Source: Brachybacterium ginsengisoli (lineage in GTDB: Bacteria > Actinomycetota > Actinomycetes > Actinomycetales > Dermabacteraceae). From it: a DNA stretch of 64,000 bases. Positions 8,668 to 61,839 of the stretch are shown here, piece by piece. How positions within the stretch are numbered: position 1 is the stretch's first letter; each line of letters opens with the position of its first letter. Below the pieces are notes generated by a model. That model had not been told where the DNA came from. It searched no databases and worked only from the letters and a program-made list of their open reading frames with translations. Where the stretch lies: positions 3,534,001 to 3,598,000 of the forward strand of contig NZ_CP023564.1 of NCBI RefSeq assembly GCF_002407065.1, in the 5' to 3' direction. Both the position numbers and the translations under genes were made by a program.

Positions 8668-9898
8668 ACACGTCCCAGTCCGCCGGATCGTTCGGATCCG
8701 CGACGACACCTATGCCCGTGACCTCCCCGGTCTCCGCATCCACGCAGTAGCCCATGGCGAATCCTCGATCCAGCCCGAGCTCGACCCGGAGGTCGCCCGA
8801 GCCGAGGAGGTAGGCGAAGCCTTCCACCGCGAACGGGATCCCGCCCTCGGAGGCTCCGCCGGGCGCATCGGCCAGAGTGCCGCTGAATATCCACAGGAAG
8901 TCACCGACCGGCTCCAGCCTCAGCTCGAGCGGGCTGCCCGGCGTCCACCCGCCGACCCCGTCGCCCAGGCCCCGGGGGCACTGCCCGGGCACCTCGGCGG
9001 TGGACTCCAGGCACACCTGGAGGGCGGCGTCGACGAGGCTCTCCACCTCCTGCGTCCCGGCGTCGTTCATCTCATGGCCCATGAGGTCGAACGGCTTGCG
9101 CCAGGTGCCGAGCAGGGGCGGAACGGTGATGGTGCCCGTGGAGCTCTGCAGCCACGTCGACTCCACGGGCACGGAGAATTCGTAGGTGCCCGGCAGCAGC
9201 TGCAGCGTGGCACGCGGCGCGTCGGGGTTCCCGGTCACGGCGAGATCGTCGACGTCGAGCGGGATCCCGTTGACCTCGATCCGCTCGGTGCCCATCGGCA
9301 GCGAGAGCTGCACCTCCGGCAGCTCGACGGGCACGATCTCCCAGCGCACCGGGGAGAAGGCCCCGGCCGAGGTCGCCGTCAGCGACATCGTCACCTCCCG
9401 CTGGGCGGTGCCGCTGTCCAGGGAGGCGGTGACGGTCGCGGTGCCAGCATCCCGTACGACGTCCAGGATCTCGAAGCCCCGCACGCGGTCCGTCGCGGCG
9501 CCCAGCACCTCCGCGGTGAGAGCGGCGGAGCTCGAGTCCTCCGCTGTGCTGGCATGGGAGCGCACGGCGTCCAGATCGCCGTCGACCAGCGACTGCAGGA
9601 ACCGCTGGGCGACCTCCTCCGGGCCGTCCGCCTCCTCACCCAGCCGCGGCAGTCCCACGAGCAGGGCGAGGACGAGCGCGGCGGCGGCGCCGAGCGCGAT
9701 CAGAAGACGCCGACGGCGGACGGACGGGGACGAGGTGGCGGCGCCCCGCTGGCCAGGGCCGCTCGGAGCAGGGCCGCTCGGAGCAGGAGCGCTCGGGGCA
9801 GGCACCTGCGTCACCGGGCTCCCCGGCGAGGAGTCCTCGGGCTGGTCCCAGCCCATCGACAGCCCCCGACCCTCCGTGCGGTCACGTCCTCGTGCCAT
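8660..9898 (-). CDS. Membrane-anchored protein with large extracytoplasmic domain, unknown function
   Basis: I do not recognise the family as a whole. The 412 residues comprise a cytoplasmic Pro/Ser/Ala-rich N-terminus with a short tandem repeat (APSGPAPSGPG, about 35-50), one membrane segment at about 64-82, then an extracytoplasmic part. Residues 90-165 (GPEEVAQRFLQSLVDGDLDAV) look like the NTF2/DUF4878-type lumazine-binding fold found in many actinobacterial anchored proteins. The C-terminal half has two likely disulfide pairs (CLESTAEVPGQC and CVDAETG...DVCG). Start ATG 9898 follows GGGGAGGG. A surface-stress or wall-related role is possible but nothing fixes it. Confidence 0.8.
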   Translation of the reverse strand: MARGRDRTEGRGLSMGWDQPEDSSPGSPVTQVPAPSAPAPSGPAPSGPGQRGAATSSPSVRRRRLLIALGAAAALVLALLVGLPRLGEEADGPEEVAQRFLQSLVDGDLDAVRSHASTAEDSSSAALTAEVLGAATDRVRGFEILDVVRDAGTATVTASLDSGTAQREVTMSLTATSAGAFSPVRWEIVPVELPEVQLSLPMGTERIEVNGIPLDVDDLAVTGNPDAPRATLQLLPGTYEFSVPVESTWLQSSTGTITVPPLLGTWRKPFDLMGHEMNDAGTQEVESLVDAALQVCLESTAEVPGQCPRGLGDGVGGWTPGSPLELRLEPVGDFLWIFSGTLADAPGGASEGGIPFAVEGFAYLLGSGDLRVELGLDRGFAMGYCVDAETGEVTGIGVVADPNDPADWDVCG

Positions 9899-54367: not shown

Positions 54368-54408
54368 ATCTCTCCCCAGCGCCAGTACCCGACCATCGAG
54401 GACCTCTC

Positions 54409-55413
54409 ATGACCCCGACCCGCCAGCCCCTCCTGTCCCGCCGCGCCCTGGCCGCGTCCGGTCTGCTGCTCCCCGCCGCGCTGCTCGCGGCCTGCTCCGA
54501 TCCTGTCCCGGCGGCCCCCGCGGGCGCCGGCTCCTCCGACTCCGAAGGGTCCGACGGCGGCGGGGAGGGCACCGGCGGCATCGACACCTCCGGCACCCAG
54601 GAGCTCATCCGCTCCACCGCCGATGCCGAGATCGCCGCCCAGCTGCCGGCCGAGATCGCCGAGTCCGGCACGCTGCGGGTGGGCATCAACGGCACCAGCG
54701 CGGCGCCGCTGTCGTTCCTGGCCGACGACAACCAGACCTACATCGGCTCCGAGATCGACATCGCCCGGATCGTCGCCGACAAGCTCGGCCTCGAGTTCGA
54801 GCTGAAGCTGACCACCTGGGAGAACTGGCCGCTGAAGCTCGAGGCCGGCGAGTTCGACGTGGTCCACGCGAACATCGGCGTCAACGCGGAGCGACTGGAG
54901 AAGTTCGACTTCGCCTCGTACCGCGCGGCGTACATGTCCTTCCTGGTGAAGAAGGGCGCGGACTTCTGGCTGGAGGACGCCGACTCGATCAGCGGGAGGA
55001 TCATCGCCGTCGGCAACGCCACCAACCAGGAGCGGATCCTCACCGACTGGAACGCCGAGCTCGAGGCCGCCGGCAAGGAGCCCGCGGAGCTGAAGAACTA
55101 CTCGACCGACGCCGACACCCTGCTCGCGCTCGGCTCCGGCCGGGTCGACGGCTACCTCTCCCCCTACGCCGCGCTGAGCTTCATCACCGCGCGCCGGGAC
55201 GACTTCGAGCTGCAGGGCCGCATCAACGCCGGCTGGCCCGACGAGACCCTGGTCGCCGGCACCTTCGACCGCGGCAGCGGGCTTGCCGAGCCCTACGCCG
55301 CGGCGCTGAACGCCGTGATCGCCGACGGCACCTACGCCCAGGTCCTCGAGCGCTGGCAGATCACCGACGAAGCACTCACCGAGTCGCGCGTCCACACGAA
55401 GGAGAAGCCATGA
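54409..55413 (+). CDS. Amino-acid-type solute-binding lipoprotein, copy 1
   Basis: A 334-residue binding protein. The signal has SRR and a lipobox LLAAC (Tat-type lipoprotein); a Gly/Ser/Glu-rich linker follows, then the type II periplasmic-binding fold (LRVGINGTSAAPLSFLADDN, IARIVADKLGLEFELKLTTWENWPLKLEAGEFDVVHANI). It captures the substrate outside the membrane for the adjacent permease. It is about three-quarters identical to the next protein, so the pair arose by tandem duplication. ATG 54409 lies behind GAGGACC. Confidence 0.92.
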   Translation: MTPTRQPLLSRRALAASGLLLPAALLAACSDPVPAAPAGAGSSDSEGSDGGGEGTGGIDTSGTQELIRSTADAEIAAQLPAEIAESGTLRVGINGTSAAPLSFLADDNQTYIGSEIDIARIVADKLGLEFELKLTTWENWPLKLEAGEFDVVHANIGVNAERLEKFDFASYRAAYMSFLVKKGADFWLEDADSISGRIIAVGNATNQERILTDWNAELEAAGKEPAELKNYSTDADTLLALGSGRVDGYLSPYAALSFITARRDDFELQGRINAGWPDETLVAGTFDRGSGLAEPYAAALNAVIADGTYAQVLERWQITDEALTESRVHTKEKP

Positions 55414-56399
55414 GCGCCCGCCTCCTCTCCCGGCGCGCCCTGGCCGGAGCCGGTCTGCTGCTGCCCGTGGGGCTGCTCGCGGCCTGCTCCGACCCGACCC
55501 CCGCGGCGGACGCCGCGGGAGCGGGATCCGAAGCGTCCGACGGCGGCGGCGCGACAGCCGGAGGGATCGACACCTCCGGCACCCAGGAGCTCATCCGCTC
55601 CACCGTCGATGAGTCGGTCGCCGCGCTCCTGCCGCCCGAGATCGCCGAGTCCGGCGTGCTCCGGGTGGGCATCGGGAGCGAGAGCTTCGCCCCGCTGTCC
55701 TTCCTCGCGGACGACAACACGACCTACATCGGCTCCGAGGTGGACACCGCCCGCCTGGTCGCGGACACGCTCGGGCTCGACCTCGAGCTCGTGCTGACCA
55801 GCTGGGACAACTGGCCGCTCAAGCTCGAGGCGGGTGACTTCGACGTGGTCCACTTCAACGTGGGCGTGACGGCGGAGCGCCTGGAGAAGTTCGACTTCGC
55901 CTCCTACCGCGCGGCCTACGTCGCCTTCCTCGTGACGAAGGGGTCGGAGCTGCGCCTCAGCGATGCGGACTCCATCAGCGGGCGGATCATCGCCGTCAGC
56001 GCCGCGACCACCCAGGAGCGGATCCTCATCGACTGGAACGCCGAGCTCGAGGCCGCCGGCAAGGAGCCCGCGGAGCTGAAGAACTACTCCACCAGCGCCG
56101 ACACCCTTCTCGCCCTCGGCTCCGGCCGGGTGGACGCCTCGTTCGGGCCGTACCCGACGCAGACCTTCATCGCCGCTCGCCGCGACGACGTCGAGCTGCA
56201 GGGCCGGGTCGAGGAGGGCTGGCCGGACACGACCCTCATCGCGGCGACCTTCGACCGCGGCAGCGGGCTCGCCGAGCCCTACGCCGCCGCCCTCAACGCC
56301 CTCATCGCCGACGGCACCTACGCCCAGGTGCTCGAGCGCTGGCAGATCACCGACGAAGCGCTCACCGAGTCGCACGTCCACACCAAGGAGAAGCCATGA
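55410..56399 (+). CDS. Amino-acid-type solute-binding lipoprotein, copy 2
   Basis: A 329-residue paralogue of the preceding protein, with the same Tat-lipoprotein signal (LLAAC) and the same domain. Differences cluster in the ligand region, for example GSESFAPLSFL for GTSAAPLSFL and VHFNVGVTAERL for VHANIGVNAERL, so the two may prefer different ligands and share one permease. ATG 55410 overlaps the first copy by 4 nt; AAGGAG precedes it. Confidence 0.92.
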   Translation: MSARLLSRRALAGAGLLLPVGLLAACSDPTPAADAAGAGSEASDGGGATAGGIDTSGTQELIRSTVDESVAALLPPEIAESGVLRVGIGSESFAPLSFLADDNTTYIGSEVDTARLVADTLGLDLELVLTSWDNWPLKLEAGDFDVVHFNVGVTAERLEKFDFASYRAAYVAFLVTKGSELRLSDADSISGRIIAVSAATTQERILIDWNAELEAAGKEPAELKNYSTSADTLLALGSGRVDASFGPYPTQTFIAARRDDVELQGRVEEGWPDTTLIAATFDRGSGLAEPYAAALNALIADGTYAQVLERWQITDEALTESHVHTKEKP

Positions 56400-57367
56400 C
56401 CGACACCGCCCTCCACCCCGGCGCGGAGACCGCCGCCGCCCGCGAGGCCGGCTCGAACCTGCCCGTCCTCGCGGTGGACCTCGTCGCCGATCCGAGCCTG
56501 CTGAGCCGGCTCGCCGAGCTGGGCCGCGGCCTCGAGGAGGCGGGTGTCGGCGCCGTGACGATCAGCGACGGCGGCCTGCACCCGATCCACGTCGCCTCGT
56601 TCCTCGCGCCGCTCACGCGCACGCTCGGCCTGCTGCCGCGCACCGACGCGATCTACGTCGAGCCGTTCCACCTGGCCACGCAGCTGATGAGCCTCGACCA
56701 TCTCAGCCACGGCCGGGCCGGATGGCTGCTCACCGCGGAGACCGACCCCGCGGCGCCAGCCGCCGTCGGCCGCGAGGTGCTGGGGCTCGAGGCGACCGCC
56801 CGCGAGGCGGCCGACGTGCTCGAGGCCGCGCGGCTCGTGTGGGACTCCTGGGCGCCCGACGCCGTCGTGAAGGACACCTCGCGCGGCGTCTACGTGGACG
56901 CCGCCCGCCTGCAGTACACCGACGTCGAGGCCTCGACGTTCTCGCTGCGCGGCCCCTCGATCACCCCTCGCTCCCCGCAGGGCCTGCTGCCGGTGCTGGT
57001 CGCGGACACCGACCGTCCCGCCGTCGGCGAGCGCGTCGCGACCGAGCTGGCCGACGGGCGGGTCCTGGACGTCGACGTCTCCGCCGGAGCCCACCCCGAT
57101 CAGATCGCCGAGACCCTCGAGGGGGCCGACGCGCGCCTCGTGCGGCTCGTGGGCCTGGACCTCGAGGCCGACCCGCTGGGCACCGTCACCGCCCTCGTGG
57201 CCGCGCTGCGGGAGCGGGAGCTCATCGCCTCCGCGGCCGACGAGGGGCAGAGCCTGCGCGAGCAGCTGGGCCTCGCCATCGCCGAGCACGCCCCCGATCC
57301 CGAGCGCCGCACCGACCGTGCGCGCCGCACCGACCTCACCGACCAGACCCGCGAGGAGTCCGCATGA
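56396..57367 (+). CDS. Short LLM-class flavin-dependent oxidoreductase
   Basis: A 323-residue bacterial-luciferase-family protein, shorter than typical members. HPIHVASFLAPLTRTLGLLP and TDAIYVEPFHLATQLMSLDHLSHGRAGWLLTAETDP are the family core. Such enzymes use reduced flavin and O2 to oxygenate or desulfonate small molecules. ATG 56396 overlaps the second binding-protein gene, and its end overlaps the NtaA-type monooxygenase as ATGA. With the next protein it resembles the YtmO/YtnJ pair. Confidence 0.87.
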   Translation: MTDTALHPGAETAAAREAGSNLPVLAVDLVADPSLLSRLAELGRGLEEAGVGAVTISDGGLHPIHVASFLAPLTRTLGLLPRTDAIYVEPFHLATQLMSLDHLSHGRAGWLLTAETDPAAPAAVGREVLGLEATAREAADVLEAARLVWDSWAPDAVVKDTSRGVYVDAARLQYTDVEASTFSLRGPSITPRSPQGLLPVLVADTDRPAVGERVATELADGRVLDVDVSAGAHPDQIAETLEGADARLVRLVGLDLEADPLGTVTALVAALRERELIASAADEGQSLREQLGLAIAEHAPDPERRTDRARRTDLTDQTREESA

Positions 57368-58704
57368 CCACCACGCAGTCCCCCTCCCTCGCCACCGGCC
57401 CCGCCGAGCACCCGATCCACCCGGAGCACACCCCCACCGGGCAGCTCGCCTTCGGGGCGTTCTTCCAGGGCGTGAACTCCTCGACGATCTGGCGCCTGCC
57501 CGAGAGCGGCGACCAGGTGGCCTGGGAGTCCTTCGAGGCGCTGGTGCGCACCGCCGAGCGCGGGCGGTTCGCGGCCTTCTTCCTCGGGGAGGGCCTGCGC
57601 CTGCGGGAGCACCGCGAGGTGCCCTTCGAGCTCGACGTGGCCGGCCGCCCCGACGCGCAGACGCTGCTCGCGGCGCTGGCCGGGGTCACCGAGAGGATCG
57701 GCCTGGTCGCCACGCAGAACACCACCTACAACGACCCCGTGGATCTCGCCCGCCGTCTGCAGACCCTCGACCTGCTCTCCGGCGGACGGGCCGGCTGGAA
57801 CATCGTCACCACCGACAACGCCTGGACCGGGGAGAACTTCCGCCGCGGCGGCTACCTCGACCATGAGGACCGGTACGTCCACGCCGAGGCGTTCGTGGAG
57901 GTCGCCGAGCAGTACTGGCGCGGCGAGCAGATCACCCACGACGGCGCCCACTACTCCGTGCGCGCCCAGGGCGACCTGCCCCGCTCCGCCCAGGGCCGAC
58001 CGGTGCTGTTCCAGGCCGGCGCCTCCCCCGCCGGACAGGACTTCGCCGCCCGCACCTCGGACGTCATCTTCTCCCCGCACGGGACCCTCGAGGCGGCGGT
58101 CGAGTTCCGCCGCTCGATCGTGGAGCGCACCGTCGCCGCGGGCCGCGACGCCGGCAGCGTGAAGATCCTGCCCGGGGCCGAGATCATCCTCGCCCCCACC
58201 GAGGCGGAGGCCGAGGAGAAGGTGCGCTGGGTGCGCGACCTCCAGATCGGCCCCGAGCAGGCCATCGCCCTGCTCGAGCAGTACTGGGGTCGTGACCTCT
58301 CCGCCTTCGACCCCGACGGCCCGCTGCCCGACGTGGCACCCGAGGTGGTCGAGTCCGGCGTGACCCGCGGCGCCGGCTTCCAGTTCGCCAAGGCCGAGGA
58401 GCTCACCCGCGCCTGGCGCGAGGAGGCCGCCGAGAAGGGCCAGTCGATCCTCGAGTTCGCCCGGGCACGCTCCGGGGCCCGGCGCGGCACCTTCACCGGC
58501 AGCTACGACCAGGTCGCCGAGCGCCTGGTGGAGTTCGCGCGGCTGGGGGCGATCGACGGCCTGAACATCACGCCGTGGCTGATCCCCTCGGGCCTCGACG
58601 ACATCGTGGACGAGCTGATCCCCCGCCTGCAGGAGCGCGGGGTCTACCCCACCGAGTACGCGGGCGCGACGCTGCGGGAGAACCTGGGGCTGCCGCCGGG
58701 GTGA
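57364..58704 (+). CDS. NtaA/DmoA-family FMN-dependent monooxygenase
   Basis: A 446-residue luciferase-fold monooxygenase of the NtaA/SnaA/DszA/YxeK/YtnJ group, which oxygenate nitrilotriacetate, dibenzothiophene sulfone or S-alkyl cysteines using FMNH2 supplied by a reductase. LSGGRAGWNIVTTDNAWTGENF and FQAGASPAGQDFAARTSDVIF are signatures. Its last 17 codons, ending at TGA 58702-58704, are repeated downstream at 60243-60293 after a 1.5 kb insert. ATG 57364 overlaps the previous gene by 4 nt. Last gene of the transporter operon. Confidence 0.92.
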   Translation: MTTTQSPSLATGPAEHPIHPEHTPTGQLAFGAFFQGVNSSTIWRLPESGDQVAWESFEALVRTAERGRFAAFFLGEGLRLREHREVPFELDVAGRPDAQTLLAALAGVTERIGLVATQNTTYNDPVDLARRLQTLDLLSGGRAGWNIVTTDNAWTGENFRRGGYLDHEDRYVHAEAFVEVAEQYWRGEQITHDGAHYSVRAQGDLPRSAQGRPVLFQAGASPAGQDFAARTSDVIFSPHGTLEAAVEFRRSIVERTVAAGRDAGSVKILPGAEIILAPTEAEAEEKVRWVRDLQIGPEQAIALLEQYWGRDLSAFDPDGPLPDVAPEVVESGVTRGAGFQFAKAEELTRAWREEAAEKGQSILEFARARSGARRGTFTGSYDQVAERLVEFARLGAIDGLNITPWLIPSGLDDIVDELIPRLQERGVYPTEYAGATLRENLGLPPG

Positions 58705-58706
58705 GC
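58656..58706 (+). repeat. Direct repeat, left copy (3' end of the monooxygenase gene)
   Basis: A 51-bp segment including the monooxygenase stop codon. It matches 60243-60293 at 49 of 51 positions, with a 37-bp exact core (58663-58699). Mismatches lie at 58662 and 58700. Confidence 0.9.
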
Positions 58707-58778
58707 GGTGCGCCCGCTCAGCGTGCCGGGCAACGAACCGATCACGATTCCTCTCCGGCACCCACTATTTCCCCGGTC

Positions 58779-58859
58779 GTGGATCAACTGTCGGTTCTAC
58801 GAGAGACACTCGTGAGGATGTGGCAGCACGAAGCCGCCCCCGAGCTCCCGGAGCACTGA
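58779..58859 (+). CDS. Possible 26-residue upstream peptide
   Basis: GTG 58779 opens a frame MDQLSVLRETLVRMWQHEAA... that ends with a TGA at 58857-58859, immediately followed in the same frame by the ATG of the islet gene. Stop and start are adjacent, so ribosomes could reinitiate or occasionally read through. An A+T-rich stretch before it (CACTATTT) may be a promoter. The frame may also be chance. Confidence 0.3.
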   Translation: MDQLSVLRETLVRMWQHEAAPELPEH

Positions 58860-60149
58860 ATGACGCATGAGATCGAAGTGATCAGCGACGGCGATGGACT
58901 CGCCGTGCTCGGTACTCCCGGGGACGTCGACGCCTTCCTGACGTCGTTCGGCTTCGAATCCCGCGAGCTCGAGCTCCACCGGCTCGGCCCGTCGTACAAA
59001 ACCACTGCAGGCATCTTGAACGCCGGCGCTGGGGCCGCGGCGAACTCGGGCCGCTGGATGAAGCTCACGTCGGAATCCTTCGCCGCGTCAAAGAAACTTG
59101 CGCTCGTCAAGAATGCCGCCACCGGGAACTTCCACGCCACCCTCCGCGCGTCGAGCGGCCAGTTCTCCAAGAACCTGCAGTTCGTCGCGGCGCCGGGAAC
59201 TCTGCTCAACCCCGCTGCCCTCGCCGCCGCCGGAGCGGTCATGTCGCAGATGGCGATGCAGGAGGCGATCGAGGAGATCGGCGAGTACCTCGCAGTCATC
59301 GACGAGAAGATCGACGACATTCTGCGCGCGCAGAAGGATTCGGTGTTCTCCGACATGATCGGCGTGGACCTCATGATCGAGGAGGCCATGACCGTCCGTG
59401 ACGAGGTCGGCCGCGTCTCGGAAGTGACCTGGTCCAAGATCCAGAACTCCGCGCAGACCCTTGCCACCACCGAGGCGTACGCGCTGCGGCAGATCGATGC
59501 GCAGGCGGAGAAGGTCGAGCAGGCGAGCGTGCCGGATCTCGCCACCAAGGCGAAGGCCGCCGAGTCCACGGTGCGGGAATGGCTCGCCGTGCTCGCACGC
59601 TGTGTCCAGCTGCAGGATGCCCTCGCAGTTCTCGAGCTCGATCGTGTGCTCGACAGCGCCCCGGAGGAGCTCGACCGCCATCGCCTCGGGCTCCGCGCGG
59701 CACGGGAGAAGCGCCTGGCGCTGATCCACCGCACGACGGAGGAACTGCTCGAGCGCATGAACACCACCATCCGTCGGGCCAATGCCAAGGTCCTCCTGTC
59801 CCCTCGACCGGCTCGCGCAGCGGTCAACTCCAGCAATCTCGTGGTGGGCCGGGTGATCGACTTCCAGACGGCTCTGAAGATCGAGGACGGTCACGACTCC
59901 GCGGAGGCGAAGCGCTGGCGAACGGCGGCTGGCGAGGTGCGCGACAAGGTGGTCAAGACGGGCGTTGATGGAGCTGGTGCAGCCATCCAGTTCGGCGGCG
60001 ACACCGCTGGCCGCGTCCGCTCCGGTGCCGGCCGCTTCTCGGAAGGTGCCCGCGCGTTCCGCGAGGCCGTCCGTCGCGATGATCCCGAGGCCGTTGACGA
60101 GTCAGCGACCGCTCAGCCTACGGACTCGCAGGCGACGCAGCTCGACTGA
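58860..60149 (+). CDS. Uncharacterised 429-residue islet protein
   Basis: I do not recognise a family. The N-terminus (EIEVISDGDGLAVLGTPGDV) looks like a small alpha/beta domain. Residues 130-310 are long alpha helices rich in Glu, Ala and Arg, probably coiled coil (IEEIGEYLAVIDEKIDDILRAQ; LDRHRLGLRAAREKRLALIH). A hydrophobic patch near 110-130 (GTLLNPAALAAAGAVMSQM) could insert in a membrane. The C-terminal 80 residues are Gly/Ala/Arg-rich and end in a Thr/Gln tail. It is soluble or peripheral, without a signal. ATG 58860 has GGAG 6 nt upstream. A single-gene function, possibly defence or competition, is an inference from its position in an islet. Confidence 0.7.
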   Translation: MTHEIEVISDGDGLAVLGTPGDVDAFLTSFGFESRELELHRLGPSYKTTAGILNAGAGAAANSGRWMKLTSESFAASKKLALVKNAATGNFHATLRASSGQFSKNLQFVAAPGTLLNPAALAAAGAVMSQMAMQEAIEEIGEYLAVIDEKIDDILRAQKDSVFSDMIGVDLMIEEAMTVRDEVGRVSEVTWSKIQNSAQTLATTEAYALRQIDAQAEKVEQASVPDLATKAKAAESTVREWLAVLARCVQLQDALAVLELDRVLDSAPEELDRHRLGLRAAREKRLALIHRTTEELLERMNTTIRRANAKVLLSPRPARAAVNSSNLVVGRVIDFQTALKIEDGHDSAEAKRWRTAAGEVRDKVVKTGVDGAGAAIQFGGDTAGRVRSGAGRFSEGARAFREAVRRDDPEAVDESATAQPTDSQATQLD

Positions 60150-60242
60150 GCGGATACGCCTGCTAGTCCCCGTGAGGATCTGGGGTGCCACCTCAGCGAG
60201 CTGCGGGGTTGAGCCGCGCACCTGTCCCCCTGATGTCGCCGG

Positions 60243-60293
60243 GTACGCCGGCGCGACGCTGCGGGAGAACCTGGGGCTGCCGCCGGTGTGAGC
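60243..60293 (+). repeat. Direct repeat, right copy
   Basis: Matches the left copy over 51 bp. Translated in the same frame it gives YAGATLRENLGLPPV and a stop, the end of the monooxygenase, but nothing upstream of 60243 matches the body of that gene. The remainder of the 311-bp gap to the LysR gene (60294-60448) shows only the palindrome described next. Confidence 0.9.
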
Positions 60294-60425
60294 CCGCGCC
60301 CCGCCGTCCCCCGCGCGTGCCCGCGCCCGCCGGAGTCACAGACCGGGGGATACGGGCACTCATTCCCCCTTGTTCGTGACTCCCGTGCCATGACGCTGTC
60401 CGCCTGGCACCGTGGTCAAACCCAT

Positions 60426-60454
60426 AAGCCAGGCTTGTCACCGAGGCCTACCAT
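60426..60454 (+). promoter_or_regulatory. LysR promoter: -10 box and nearby palindrome
   Basis: TACCAT (60449-60454) lies exactly 6 nt before the LysR start, and those 6 nt are GGAGGT, so the gene has both leaderless spacing and an RBS. AAGCCAGGCTT (60426-60436) is a perfect 5-bp-arm palindrome in the -35 region, well placed for autoregulation. Confidence 0.55.
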
Positions 60455-60460
60455 GGAGGT

Positions 60461-61375
60461 ATGGATCCTCGTCGTCTGCTCATCTTCCGCACCGTCGTGC
60501 GCAACGGCTCGATCGGTGCCGGCGCCCGCGAGCTGGGCTGGACCCAGCCCGCGGTCTCCCAGCACCTCGCCGCGCTCGAGAAGGAGGTGGGCACGCAGCT
60601 GCTGCTGCGCTCCTCCGCGGGGATCACGCCCACGGAGGCCGGCGGCCGGCTCGCCGCCCATGCCGAGGCGATCGCCGCCCAGCTCCACGCCGCCGAGGAG
60701 GAGCTCGCGGACATCACCGCGCTGCGCCGCGGCACGGTGAAGTTCGGGACCTTCCCGTCGGCCGCCGCGATGCTGCTGCCGCCGGTGCTGAACCGTCTCG
60801 CCGAGACCGCACCGGATCTGGACGTCACCTTCTCCGAGCTCGAGCCGCCGGACGCCGTGGTCGCGCTGCGCGAGGGCGATCTCGACCTGGCGCTGGTGTT
60901 CCGCTACCCCTGCAGCGACATCGGCGACGAGGGCACCCTGGAGTGGACGCCGCTGATGGAGGACCGCGTGATGCTGGTGATGCCGCGCGACCATCCCCGC
61001 GCCGAGGACCCGGACCTCACCCTGGGCGATCTCGCGCAGGACCCGTGGATCGCGGGCTGCGAGCGGTGTCGGGCGAACCTCATCTCGAGCGCCCGTCGGG
61101 CGGGCTTCTCGCCGACGGTGCGCCACTCGACCGACGACACGATCGTGGTCCAGCAGCTGATCATGCACGGCGGCGGTGTGGCGCTCATGCCGGAGACCGC
61201 CCTCGAGGCCGCACCGACCGCGGACCTCGTGGTACGCGCGATCCCGGACCTCGACAACCGCATGATCGGCCTGCTCAACCGTCGCGGCGCCCTGGCGATC
61301 CCGGCCGTGGGGGCGCTGCGGGACGCGCTGGTGGCAGAGACCACCGAGCGCCTGGCCACGGCGGTGATGATCTGA
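60461..61375 (+). CDS. LysR-family transcriptional regulator
   Basis: A 304-residue regulator with the N-terminal HTH at about 18-40 (NGSIGAGARELGWTQPAVSQHL) and an effector domain (FPSAAAMLLPPVLNRLAETAP and later motifs) to the end. It is the only regulator near the transporter/monooxygenase operon and may correspond to the YtlI-type LysR of ytm operons; the islet now separates them. ATG 61375 end overlaps the next gene by 4 nt. Confidence 0.9.
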   Translation: MDPRRLLIFRTVVRNGSIGAGARELGWTQPAVSQHLAALEKEVGTQLLLRSSAGITPTEAGGRLAAHAEAIAAQLHAAEEELADITALRRGTVKFGTFPSAAAMLLPPVLNRLAETAPDLDVTFSELEPPDAVVALREGDLDLALVFRYPCSDIGDEGTLEWTPLMEDRVMLVMPRDHPRAEDPDLTLGDLAQDPWIAGCERCRANLISSARRAGFSPTVRHSTDDTIVVQQLIMHGGGVALMPETALEAAPTADLVVRAIPDLDNRMIGLLNRRGALAIPAVGALRDALVAETTERLATAVMI

Positions 61376-61839
61376 ACGCCGACGCCCCTCGCGTCCCCGC
61401 CCGCGCCTGGCTGCGCCCGGCCCTGCTGCTGATCGGCGGGCTGCTGCTCGCCGTGGTGCTGGTGCTCGCGGAGCAGTGGATCGCCGCGGTCGCCATCGCG
61501 CTCTTCTCGGTGTTCATGGCGTACTGGACGAGCCCGCTGCGCGCCGGCGAGCACACCCCGCTGGCGACCGCCCTCGAGCGCCGAGGCCCGGGCACCGCGA
61601 TCGTGCTGTGGGCCCCGGGGAACCCGCTCTCGAGCCGGCTGCAGGTCGCCTTCCGCAGCCCGCGCGAGGACCTGGTGTGGGTGAACGTGCACCGCGACGC
61701 CGCGGCCCAGGAGCTGCTGACCGAGCACGGCGGGGCCGACTCGCTGCCGCTGGTGCTGGTGGGCGGGTCGGTGCAGCGACGCGCCACCGCGGGCGAGCTG
61801 CTGGACCTGCAGGACGCCGAGCTGCGCCGCGGGGAGTGA
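61372..61839 (+). CDS. Membrane protein with cysteine-less thioredoxin-like domain, probable CTG start
   Basis: 155 residues. No ATG, GTG or TTG exists in the frame before the first membrane segment; CTG at 61372 overlaps the LysR stop as CTGA, the same 4-nt style as ATGA and GTGA elsewhere in this window, so I take it as the start. Two membrane segments lie at about 13-50. The rest has a thioredoxin/glutaredoxin fold (TAIVLWAPGNPLSSRLQVAF, then SLPLVLVGG with the cis-Pro), but the CxxC position reads APGNP with no cysteine. It is presumably a non-redox member. Internal GTG codons would remove part of the first helix. Confidence 0.55.
   Translation: MNADAPRVPARAWLRPALLLIGGLLLAVVLVLAEQWIAAVAIALFSVFMAYWTSPLRAGEHTPLATALERRGPGTAIVLWAPGNPLSSRLQVAFRSPREDLVWVNVHRDAAAQELLTEHGGADSLPLVLVGGSVQRRATAGELLDLQDAELRRGE

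What the first reader, a model, noticed from the sequence alone, without database searches (positions are those of the whole stretch)
58656..60293. Single-gene islet bounded by 51-bp direct repeats of the host gene's 3' end
Seen: the last 51 bp of the monooxygenase gene, including its stop, recur 1587 bp downstream at 49 of 51 positions (37-bp exact core). Between the copies lies one gene for an unrecognised 429-residue protein with a less GC-biased codon use. Known: integrative elements that use a gene's 3' end as attachment site restore it with a direct repeat. Inference: either a small cargo cassette integrated here with its recombinase supplied elsewhere, or a tandem monooxygenase duplication was replaced. 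The islet also separates the operon from its likely LysR regulator, consistent with insertion into an older operon-regulator pair.
Basis: partly seen in the sequence, partly recalled or inferred. Interest (0 to 1): 0.78.

Follow-up and report, generated by a model that had tools for sequence, protein, structure and literature searches.

The report
Accessory gene at a turnover site
An uncharacterised accessory gene sits between a monooxygenase operon and its likely regulator, beside a short duplicated piece of the monooxygenase gene; relatives show that the spot gains and loses genes, and the duplication looks like a local recombination scar rather than the signature of a mobile cassette.

Summary
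In detail: 49 of 51 (52 of 55) positions, 37-bp exact core, no third copy of the core within 3 mismatches in the genome. One 429-codon gene (X) lies between. Gain of X is supported: of 21 Brachybacterium genomes (window included) in which I placed both monooxygenase and LysR gene, 14 have them adjacent (70-413 bp), 3 carry X between, 4 carry other genes; X and LysR trees conflict strongly. The attachment-site cassette is not supported: the two other genomes with monooxygenase-X-LysR have no second repeat, 0 of 78 X loci of other genomes have flanking repeats, and the genome's tyrosine recombinases are only an XerC/XerD-like pair, with no serine recombinase found. A replaced tandem monooxygenase is not supported. 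A late check found short extra copies of the monooxygenase end in two genomes without X (G059, G020), so this gene end duplicates locally now and then. Best reading: an integrase-free gene-turnover site; X arrived by horizontal transfer, and the repeat is a scar of recombination at the gene end, made with X's arrival or before it. X's function is unknown: a largely helical protein with no family.

The parts
57364..58704 (+). NtaA/DmoA-family FMN-dependent monooxygenase; last gene of the transport-monooxygenase operon
   Evidence: NCBIfam TIGR03860 342.6 bits over cut-off 279.7; Pfam Bac_luciferase
58652..58706 (+). Repeat copy 1: 3' end and stop of the monooxygenase gene
58707..58859 (+). 5' flank of X; resembles the 5' flank of X in G007 and, less, G011
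   Evidence: alignment scores 128 and 69 for 58705-58859
58860..60149 (+). Gene X, 429 residues, uncharacterised actinobacterial accessory family
   Evidence: no Pfam or NCBIfam family over its cut-off
60150..60238 (+). Spacer between X stop and repeat copy 2; no detectable monooxygenase remnant
60239..60293 (+). Repeat copy 2: duplicated monooxygenase 3' end with stop
60332..60383 (+). Imperfect palindrome (GGAGTCAC...GTGACTCC) after copy 2, one of a family repeated in the genome; fold of the stretch is not unusual (z -1.5)
   Evidence: coordinates read
60461..61375 (+). LysR-type regulator, next to the monooxygenase in most relatives where both were placed

Best explanation
The interval between the monooxygenase gene and the LysR gene is a small site of gene turnover without mobile-element machinery. 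Gene X is one of several genes that occupy it in Brachybacterium, and X and LysR have different histories, so X (or, less likely, LysR) moved horizontally. The repeat is a scar of recombination at the monooxygenase end, not an attachment site. The route I favour is one step: incoming DNA carrying a monooxygenase end followed by X paired with the resident end, and its far side joined illegitimately about 51 bp before the resident stop, leaving copy 1, X, spacer, then the old end (copy 2) with its old downstream DNA. Nearly as likely, the gene end had first been duplicated locally, as seems to have happened in G059 and G020, and X then entered between the copies. Shown: empty and filled states, tree conflict, no repeat in the other X carriers of this site, no cassette recombinase found, a joined empty site that reads as an intact gene. 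Inferred: the route, and a close-kin source of the copied end (both copies share an alanine codon seen in 1 of 26 relatives).
For: Of 21 genomes with both genes placed: 14 adjacent, 3 with X, 4 with other genes (AraC plus VOC proteins in G022 and G016, VOC in G059, HxlR/RidA-like in G029; names are my reading of the translations). G018, counted as adjacent, keeps a 19-residue VOC scrap right after the monooxygenase (E 6e-5), which shows loss as well as gain. X tree pairs window with G007 (100/99); LysR tree puts the window in an 8-genome clade without G007 (99/98); AU p 7e-6 for window+G004 in the X tree, 4e-5 for window+G007 in the LysR tree. No second repeat in G007 or G011 nor in any of 78 X loci of other genomes. 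Short extra copies of the gene end in genomes without X: G059 (21 columns, score 35) and G020 (32 columns, directly after the stop, score 30), each above all 200 shuffles. Long palindrome between monooxygenase and X in G007 and G011, so X entered at another point there. Copy-1 left joined to copy-2 right reads as an intact gene ending GLPPV. Recombinases: only an XerC/XerD-like pair for PF00589, none for PF00239; Ku and ComEC present. Hotspots lacking mobile elements, with recombination at flanking core genes, are described (PMC5635113, abstract and passages), as is illegitimate recombination assisted by homology (PMC2884548, passages).
Against: No close relative shows the state before insertion: the nearest full-length LysR DNA is 91% (G002). 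The spacer 60150-60238 matches no donor. The shared alanine codon could come from later conversion between the copies. X could also be ancestral to the genus at this site, lost often, with a single transfer; but no X scrap was found in the other 24 intervals (best E 0.59). The window's palindrome is weak (script score 10; 17 of 200 shuffles fold as well) and belongs to a repeated family, so it need not mark the old downstream DNA. 27 genomes were tested for extra gene-end copies, and G020 exceeds its shuffles narrowly (30 against 27). LysR is one gene and may itself have moved. Recombination rates of the flanks were not measured.
Confidence: 0.6

Rival explanations
1. A small cassette or integrative element integrated at the 3' end of the monooxygenase through a site-specific recombinase supplied in trans; the repeats are attL and attR.
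For: 49 of 51 repeat that restores the gene end; GC-poorer cargo; X family patchy, in 5 of 38 genus genomes, with 4 plasmid records holding relatives.
Against: No second repeat in G007 and G011, and a palindrome sits between monooxygenase and X there. 0 of 78 X loci of other genomes have repeats above control. Only an XerC/XerD-like pair of tyrosine recombinases and no serine recombinase found. No X relative found in phage records or viral contigs. Gene-end copies occur without X in G059 and G020.
Confidence: 0.1
2. X already stood after the monooxygenase, as in G007; a tandem duplication spanning the gene end and X was followed by two deletions, leaving X between two gene ends.
For: Both copies share a codon rare among relatives, as expected of a duplication inside the lineage; X sits at this interval in 3 of the other 4 genus carriers.
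Against: Needs three events; no trace of the lost second X, and only one X match in the genome.
Confidence: 0.13
3. A circular molecule carrying X and a fragment of the monooxygenase 3' end integrated by a single RecA crossover, duplicating the shared segment.
For: Produces this direct repeat and keeps the gene intact; X relatives occur on four actinobacterial plasmids.
Against: No plasmid backbone remains: only X and about 240 bp of other DNA lie between the copies; none of the 4 plasmid records is from Brachybacterium.
Confidence: 0.08
4. A tandem second monooxygenase gene was replaced by X, leaving its last 51 bp.
For: Copy 2 keeps the gene's reading frame end and stop.
Against: Single strong match in each of 27 genomes; anchored alignment of 60150-60240 to eight monooxygenase ends equals random window segments on the mean score (71 of 150 controls as good), though only 8 of 150 are as good on the best of the eight.
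Confidence: 0.03

Closest known systems
Hotspots of horizontal transfer that lack mobile elements (PMC5635113; abstract and passages seen)
   Same: Variable accessory genes between two conserved genes, no integrase in the interval, patchy presence
   Different: Here seen across species of a genus, one or two genes at a time, and one member has a short duplication scar; recombination rate of the flanks not measured
Integrative elements using a gene's 3' end as attachment site
   Same: Direct repeat of the 3' end bounds the insert and restores the gene
   Different: No recombinase in the islet, none found beyond an Xer pair in the genome, no repeat at the same site in G007 and G011 or at 78 X loci
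Homology-facilitated illegitimate recombination (discussed in PMC2884548, passages seen; primary papers seen only as references)
   Same: One homologous and one non-homologous junction would yield this layout
   Different: Inferred from one genome's layout, not observed
JukB (PDB 9jht chain B) and MukBEF/MukE-MukF entries, as folds for X
   Same: Long helical bundle, Z 11.1 and 11.7 over 156 and 142 residues
   Different: 11% and 6% identity; for helical bundles Z under about 13 may be only a common arrangement (tool's note); Foldseek E at best 0.024, to a designed protein

Membership tests
Integrative element or cassette with attachment-site repeats | Direct repeats bound the insert | tested here: met
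Integrative element or cassette with attachment-site repeats | Own recombinase, or one elsewhere in the genome | tested here: not met
   Only an XerC/XerD-like pair for PF00589, 0 matches to PF00239; transposases and other recombinase families not searched
Integrative element or cassette with attachment-site repeats | Same or similar repeats at independent insertions of the cargo | tested here: not met
   G007 and G011; 0 of 78 X loci of other genomes, best score 15 against 46 in the window and up to 24 in 774 control pairs
Integrative element or cassette with attachment-site repeats | Excised circle | not testable with these tools
   Needs PCR or reads
Hotspot of horizontal transfer without mobile elements | Empty and filled states between the same two conserved genes | tested here: met
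   14 adjacent, 3 with X, 4 with other genes, of 21
Hotspot of horizontal transfer without mobile elements | Cargo horizontally moved | tested here: met
   Conflicting trees, AU p 7e-6 and 4e-5, taking LysR as proxy for the species
Hotspot of horizontal transfer without mobile elements | Raised homologous recombination in flanking genes | not tested
   No population of strains at hand
JukB-like phage defence protein (for X) | Shared fold | tested here: inconclusive
   Z 11.1 among unrelated helical proteins of similar score
Known anti-phage defence protein (for X) | Match to a PADLOC model | tested here: not met
   0 families at E <= 1 for 10 of 10 X members scanned
NtaA/DmoA FMN-dependent monooxygenase (57364-58704) | Score over the NCBIfam cut-off | tested here: met
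   342.6 against 279.7 bits

The most novel reading that the evidence does not exclude
X belongs to an undescribed actinobacterial family of solitary mobile genes that carry no recombinase yet favour one interval in Brachybacterium, where the monooxygenase gene end is itself prone to duplicate and serves as the landing homology; the protein could be a new stand-alone effector, for example in phage defence or plasmid transfer.
Probability: 0.08. Interest if true: 0.6.

Novelty: new member of a known kind. Interest (0 to 1): 0.3.

Why it matters
It is a clear case where a textbook-looking pair of attachment-site repeats is better read as a recombination scar. The comparative test (empty sites, filled sites without repeats, gene-end copies without cargo, no recombinase) separates the two readings. 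It also points to a large protein family (294 encoding stretches in the genome collection) to which the libraries searched give no function.

Tried and rejected
Tandem monooxygenase remnant upstream of copy 2: free local alignment gave 37 at best (G019) against a 95th-percentile shuffle score of 39; anchored test 71 of 150 controls as good on the mean, 8 of 150 on the best of eight references.

Flanking repeats at X loci in general: 78 loci with at least 400 bp on each side were scored over up to 1000 bp (2 of 80 dropped for short flanks); none stood out. Two of the 78 (L113, L114) are the loci of G007 and G011.

Conserved neighbours of X: in 80 loci the commonest neighbour clusters occur in 8 loci each; one is scattered, the other, which by its example sequence looks like an HTH regulator, lies one or two genes downstream in 6 of its 8 (ORFs called by a simple GC-position script, X itself found in 75 of 80). 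Defence neighbourhood: 126 immediate neighbours matched 94 PADLOC models at E <= 1e-10, while 126 proteins four to five genes away, sampled from 228, matched 143. No contrast with distance; models matched are not proteins matched, and no genome-wide background was made.

Fold of X: two AlphaFold models, mean pLDDT 62 and 64, confident only for about 140-340. Foldseek best E 0.024. VIA-align lists MukBEF entries, JukB, syntaxins and designed proteins at Z 10-12, not decisive. No solved relative by sequence (0 at E <= 1). Weak family matches scattered over members: best Pfam E 0.0018; NCBIfam Phr_regulator in 27 of 78 members, best E 0.0013, 9.9 bits in the window's protein against a cut-off of 320; PHROGs best E 0.04.

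Promoter and terminator consensus scan of 57300-61500: 0 and 0 found, so the idea that the palindrome is a terminator was dropped.

The best explanation was widened to take in a prior local duplication; its odds rose from 0.55 to 0.6 and the odds of three rivals were lowered.

Full report
Observation. The core occurs at these two places only, up to 3 mismatches allowed; E is 4e-18 in a whole-genome search. Copy 1 is the end of a monooxygenase gene of the NtaA/DmoA family. Between the copies lies one gene, X, of 429 codons, with third-position GC 0.84 against 0.93-0.98 in five neighbours. X reaches no Pfam or NCBIfam cut-off.

Is X an addition? Most likely. I searched 38 genomes of the genus; 27 have the monooxygenase at E <= 1e-150, window included. 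In 21 of these I placed the LysR gene downstream as well: 14 have it directly after the monooxygenase (70-413 bp), 3 have X between (window, G007, G011), and 4 have other genes between (G022, G016, G059, G029). The other 6 are G006, whose contig ends after a partial LysR match, and five in which no LysR was found in the stretch fetched. G004 has X before LysR but has lost the operon; a scrap of the monooxygenase end (36 of 51) lies upstream of its X. X occurs in 5 of 38 genomes, four at this interval; the fifth (G002) is elsewhere and distant (46%). Loss happens too: G018, one of the 14, keeps a 19-residue scrap of the VOC gene right after the monooxygenase (E 6e-5). No X scrap was found in the 24 intervals without X.

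Has X moved? The X protein tree joins the window with G007 (100/99), whereas the LysR tree places the window with G021, G002, G004, G022, G059, G023 and G034 (99/98) and G007 outside. Forcing window+G004 in the X tree or window+G007 in the LysR tree is rejected (AU p 7e-6 and 4e-5). So X and its neighbour have different histories, with the caution that LysR stands in for the species. One transfer on top of old presence and many losses would also fit. Monooxygenase DNA identities point the same way but weakly (88.1% to G007, 89.5% to G002 and G059).

Are the repeats attachment sites? The evidence is against it. G007 and G011 carry X at the same interval without a second repeat (26 and 28 of 51; 25 and 99 of 200 shuffles as good in the gapped test). 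They keep a long palindrome between monooxygenase and X (of 10 genomes tested, 9 exceed all 60 simple block shuffles, G031 does not). In the window a weaker palindrome, of a repeated family, follows copy 2. Among 78 X loci of other genomes none has flanking repeats above control pairs (best 15; controls up to 24; window 46). The genome's two tyrosine recombinases lie one beside a dprA-like and one beside a parA-like gene (my reading). Both are Xer proteins: the general Xer model is over its cut-off for both, the XerC and XerD models a little under theirs. No serine recombinase was found. X was not found in phage records or viral contigs; 4 plasmid records carry relatives at under 60% identity.

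Does the gene end duplicate without X? A gapped comparison of each genome's own last 54 bp with its downstream interval, 27 genomes, gave three that exceed all 200 shuffles: the window (91 against 30), G059 (35 against 29; 21 columns including the stop) and G020 (30 against 27; 32 columns directly after the stop). G002 and G023 are next, with 5 and 6 shuffles as good. G059 and G020 hold no X in that interval. So short copies of this gene end can arise on their own. G020, with two adjacent copies and no cargo, is what the window might have looked like before X.

Was there a second monooxygenase? No sign: single strong matches in all 27 genomes, and the DNA before copy 2 is no more like a monooxygenase than random segments on the mean score (71 of 150 controls as good; on the best of eight references 8 of 150).

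How did the layout arise? Joining the left part of copy 1 to the right part of copy 2 restores an intact gene ending YAGATLRENLGLPPV. Both copies have alanine where 25 of 26 relatives have another residue, so the copied end came from the same lineage, or the copies were later made alike. I favour X arriving with a monooxygenase end of close kin, one side joined by homology, the other illegitimately about 51 bp before the resident stop; a local duplication first and X second is nearly as likely. A larger duplication with two deletions, or single crossover of a circle, would give the same product. The genome has Ku and ComEC, so end joining and DNA uptake are conceivable; neither was shown. Gene-turnover sites without mobile elements are a described kind (PMC5635113, abstract and passages), as is homology-assisted illegitimate recombination (PMC2884548, passages). 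PMC3784515 (passages) describes duplications made by transformation.

What does X do? Unknown. The scan of the genome collection found 294 encoding stretches; the 80 kept all carry titles of genera that I know as Actinobacteria, the other 214 I did not see. X has no constant neighbour. In one Arthrobacter plasmid it lies between a MobF relaxase and an ArdC-like gene, in a Gordonia plasmid a few genes from Fic and DUF262 genes. The model shows a poorly predicted N-terminal part and a confident helical part. My guess is a stand-alone stress, defence or transfer-related protein; nothing here tests that.

Verdict. Observation confirmed; addition of X supported; attachment-site cassette and replaced tandem gene not supported. 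A modest, instructive example of a known kind.

Noticed in passing
window 60316-60392 and G000:C1 at about 497, 505, 607-609, 619, 631 and 1013 kb: An imperfect palindrome after repeat copy 2 has relatives (73-87% identical over about 55-73 bases) that cluster at 0.50-0.63 Mb and 1.01 Mb, several in close pairs. Role unknown.
   Followed up: partly
monooxygenase-LysR gaps of G007, G002, G028, G012, G019, G059: Long near-perfect palindromes follow the monooxygenase in several species, each with a different sequence. The position recurs although the sequence does not.
   Followed up: partly
L087 (G059) and L092 (G020), just after the monooxygenase stop: Short extra copies of the monooxygenase gene end without X: 21 columns in G059, 32 decayed columns in G020.
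   Followed up: partly
L083 (G018), first 63 bases after the monooxygenase stop: A 19-residue scrap of the VOC-protein gene that G022, G016, G059 and G004 carry before LysR.
   Followed up: partly
L076 (G004), about 9200-9275: G004 has lost the transport-monooxygenase operon; a scrap of the monooxygenase end lies between a SulP-like transporter gene (my reading) and X.
   Followed up: partly
window 54403-56399: Two tandem substrate-binding protein genes, 82-84% identical over two long stretches of DNA; most relatives show one, G007 and G031 two.
   Followed up: no
L074 (G007), start of X: X of G007 holds a 13-residue tandem duplication near its N-terminus.
   Followed up: no
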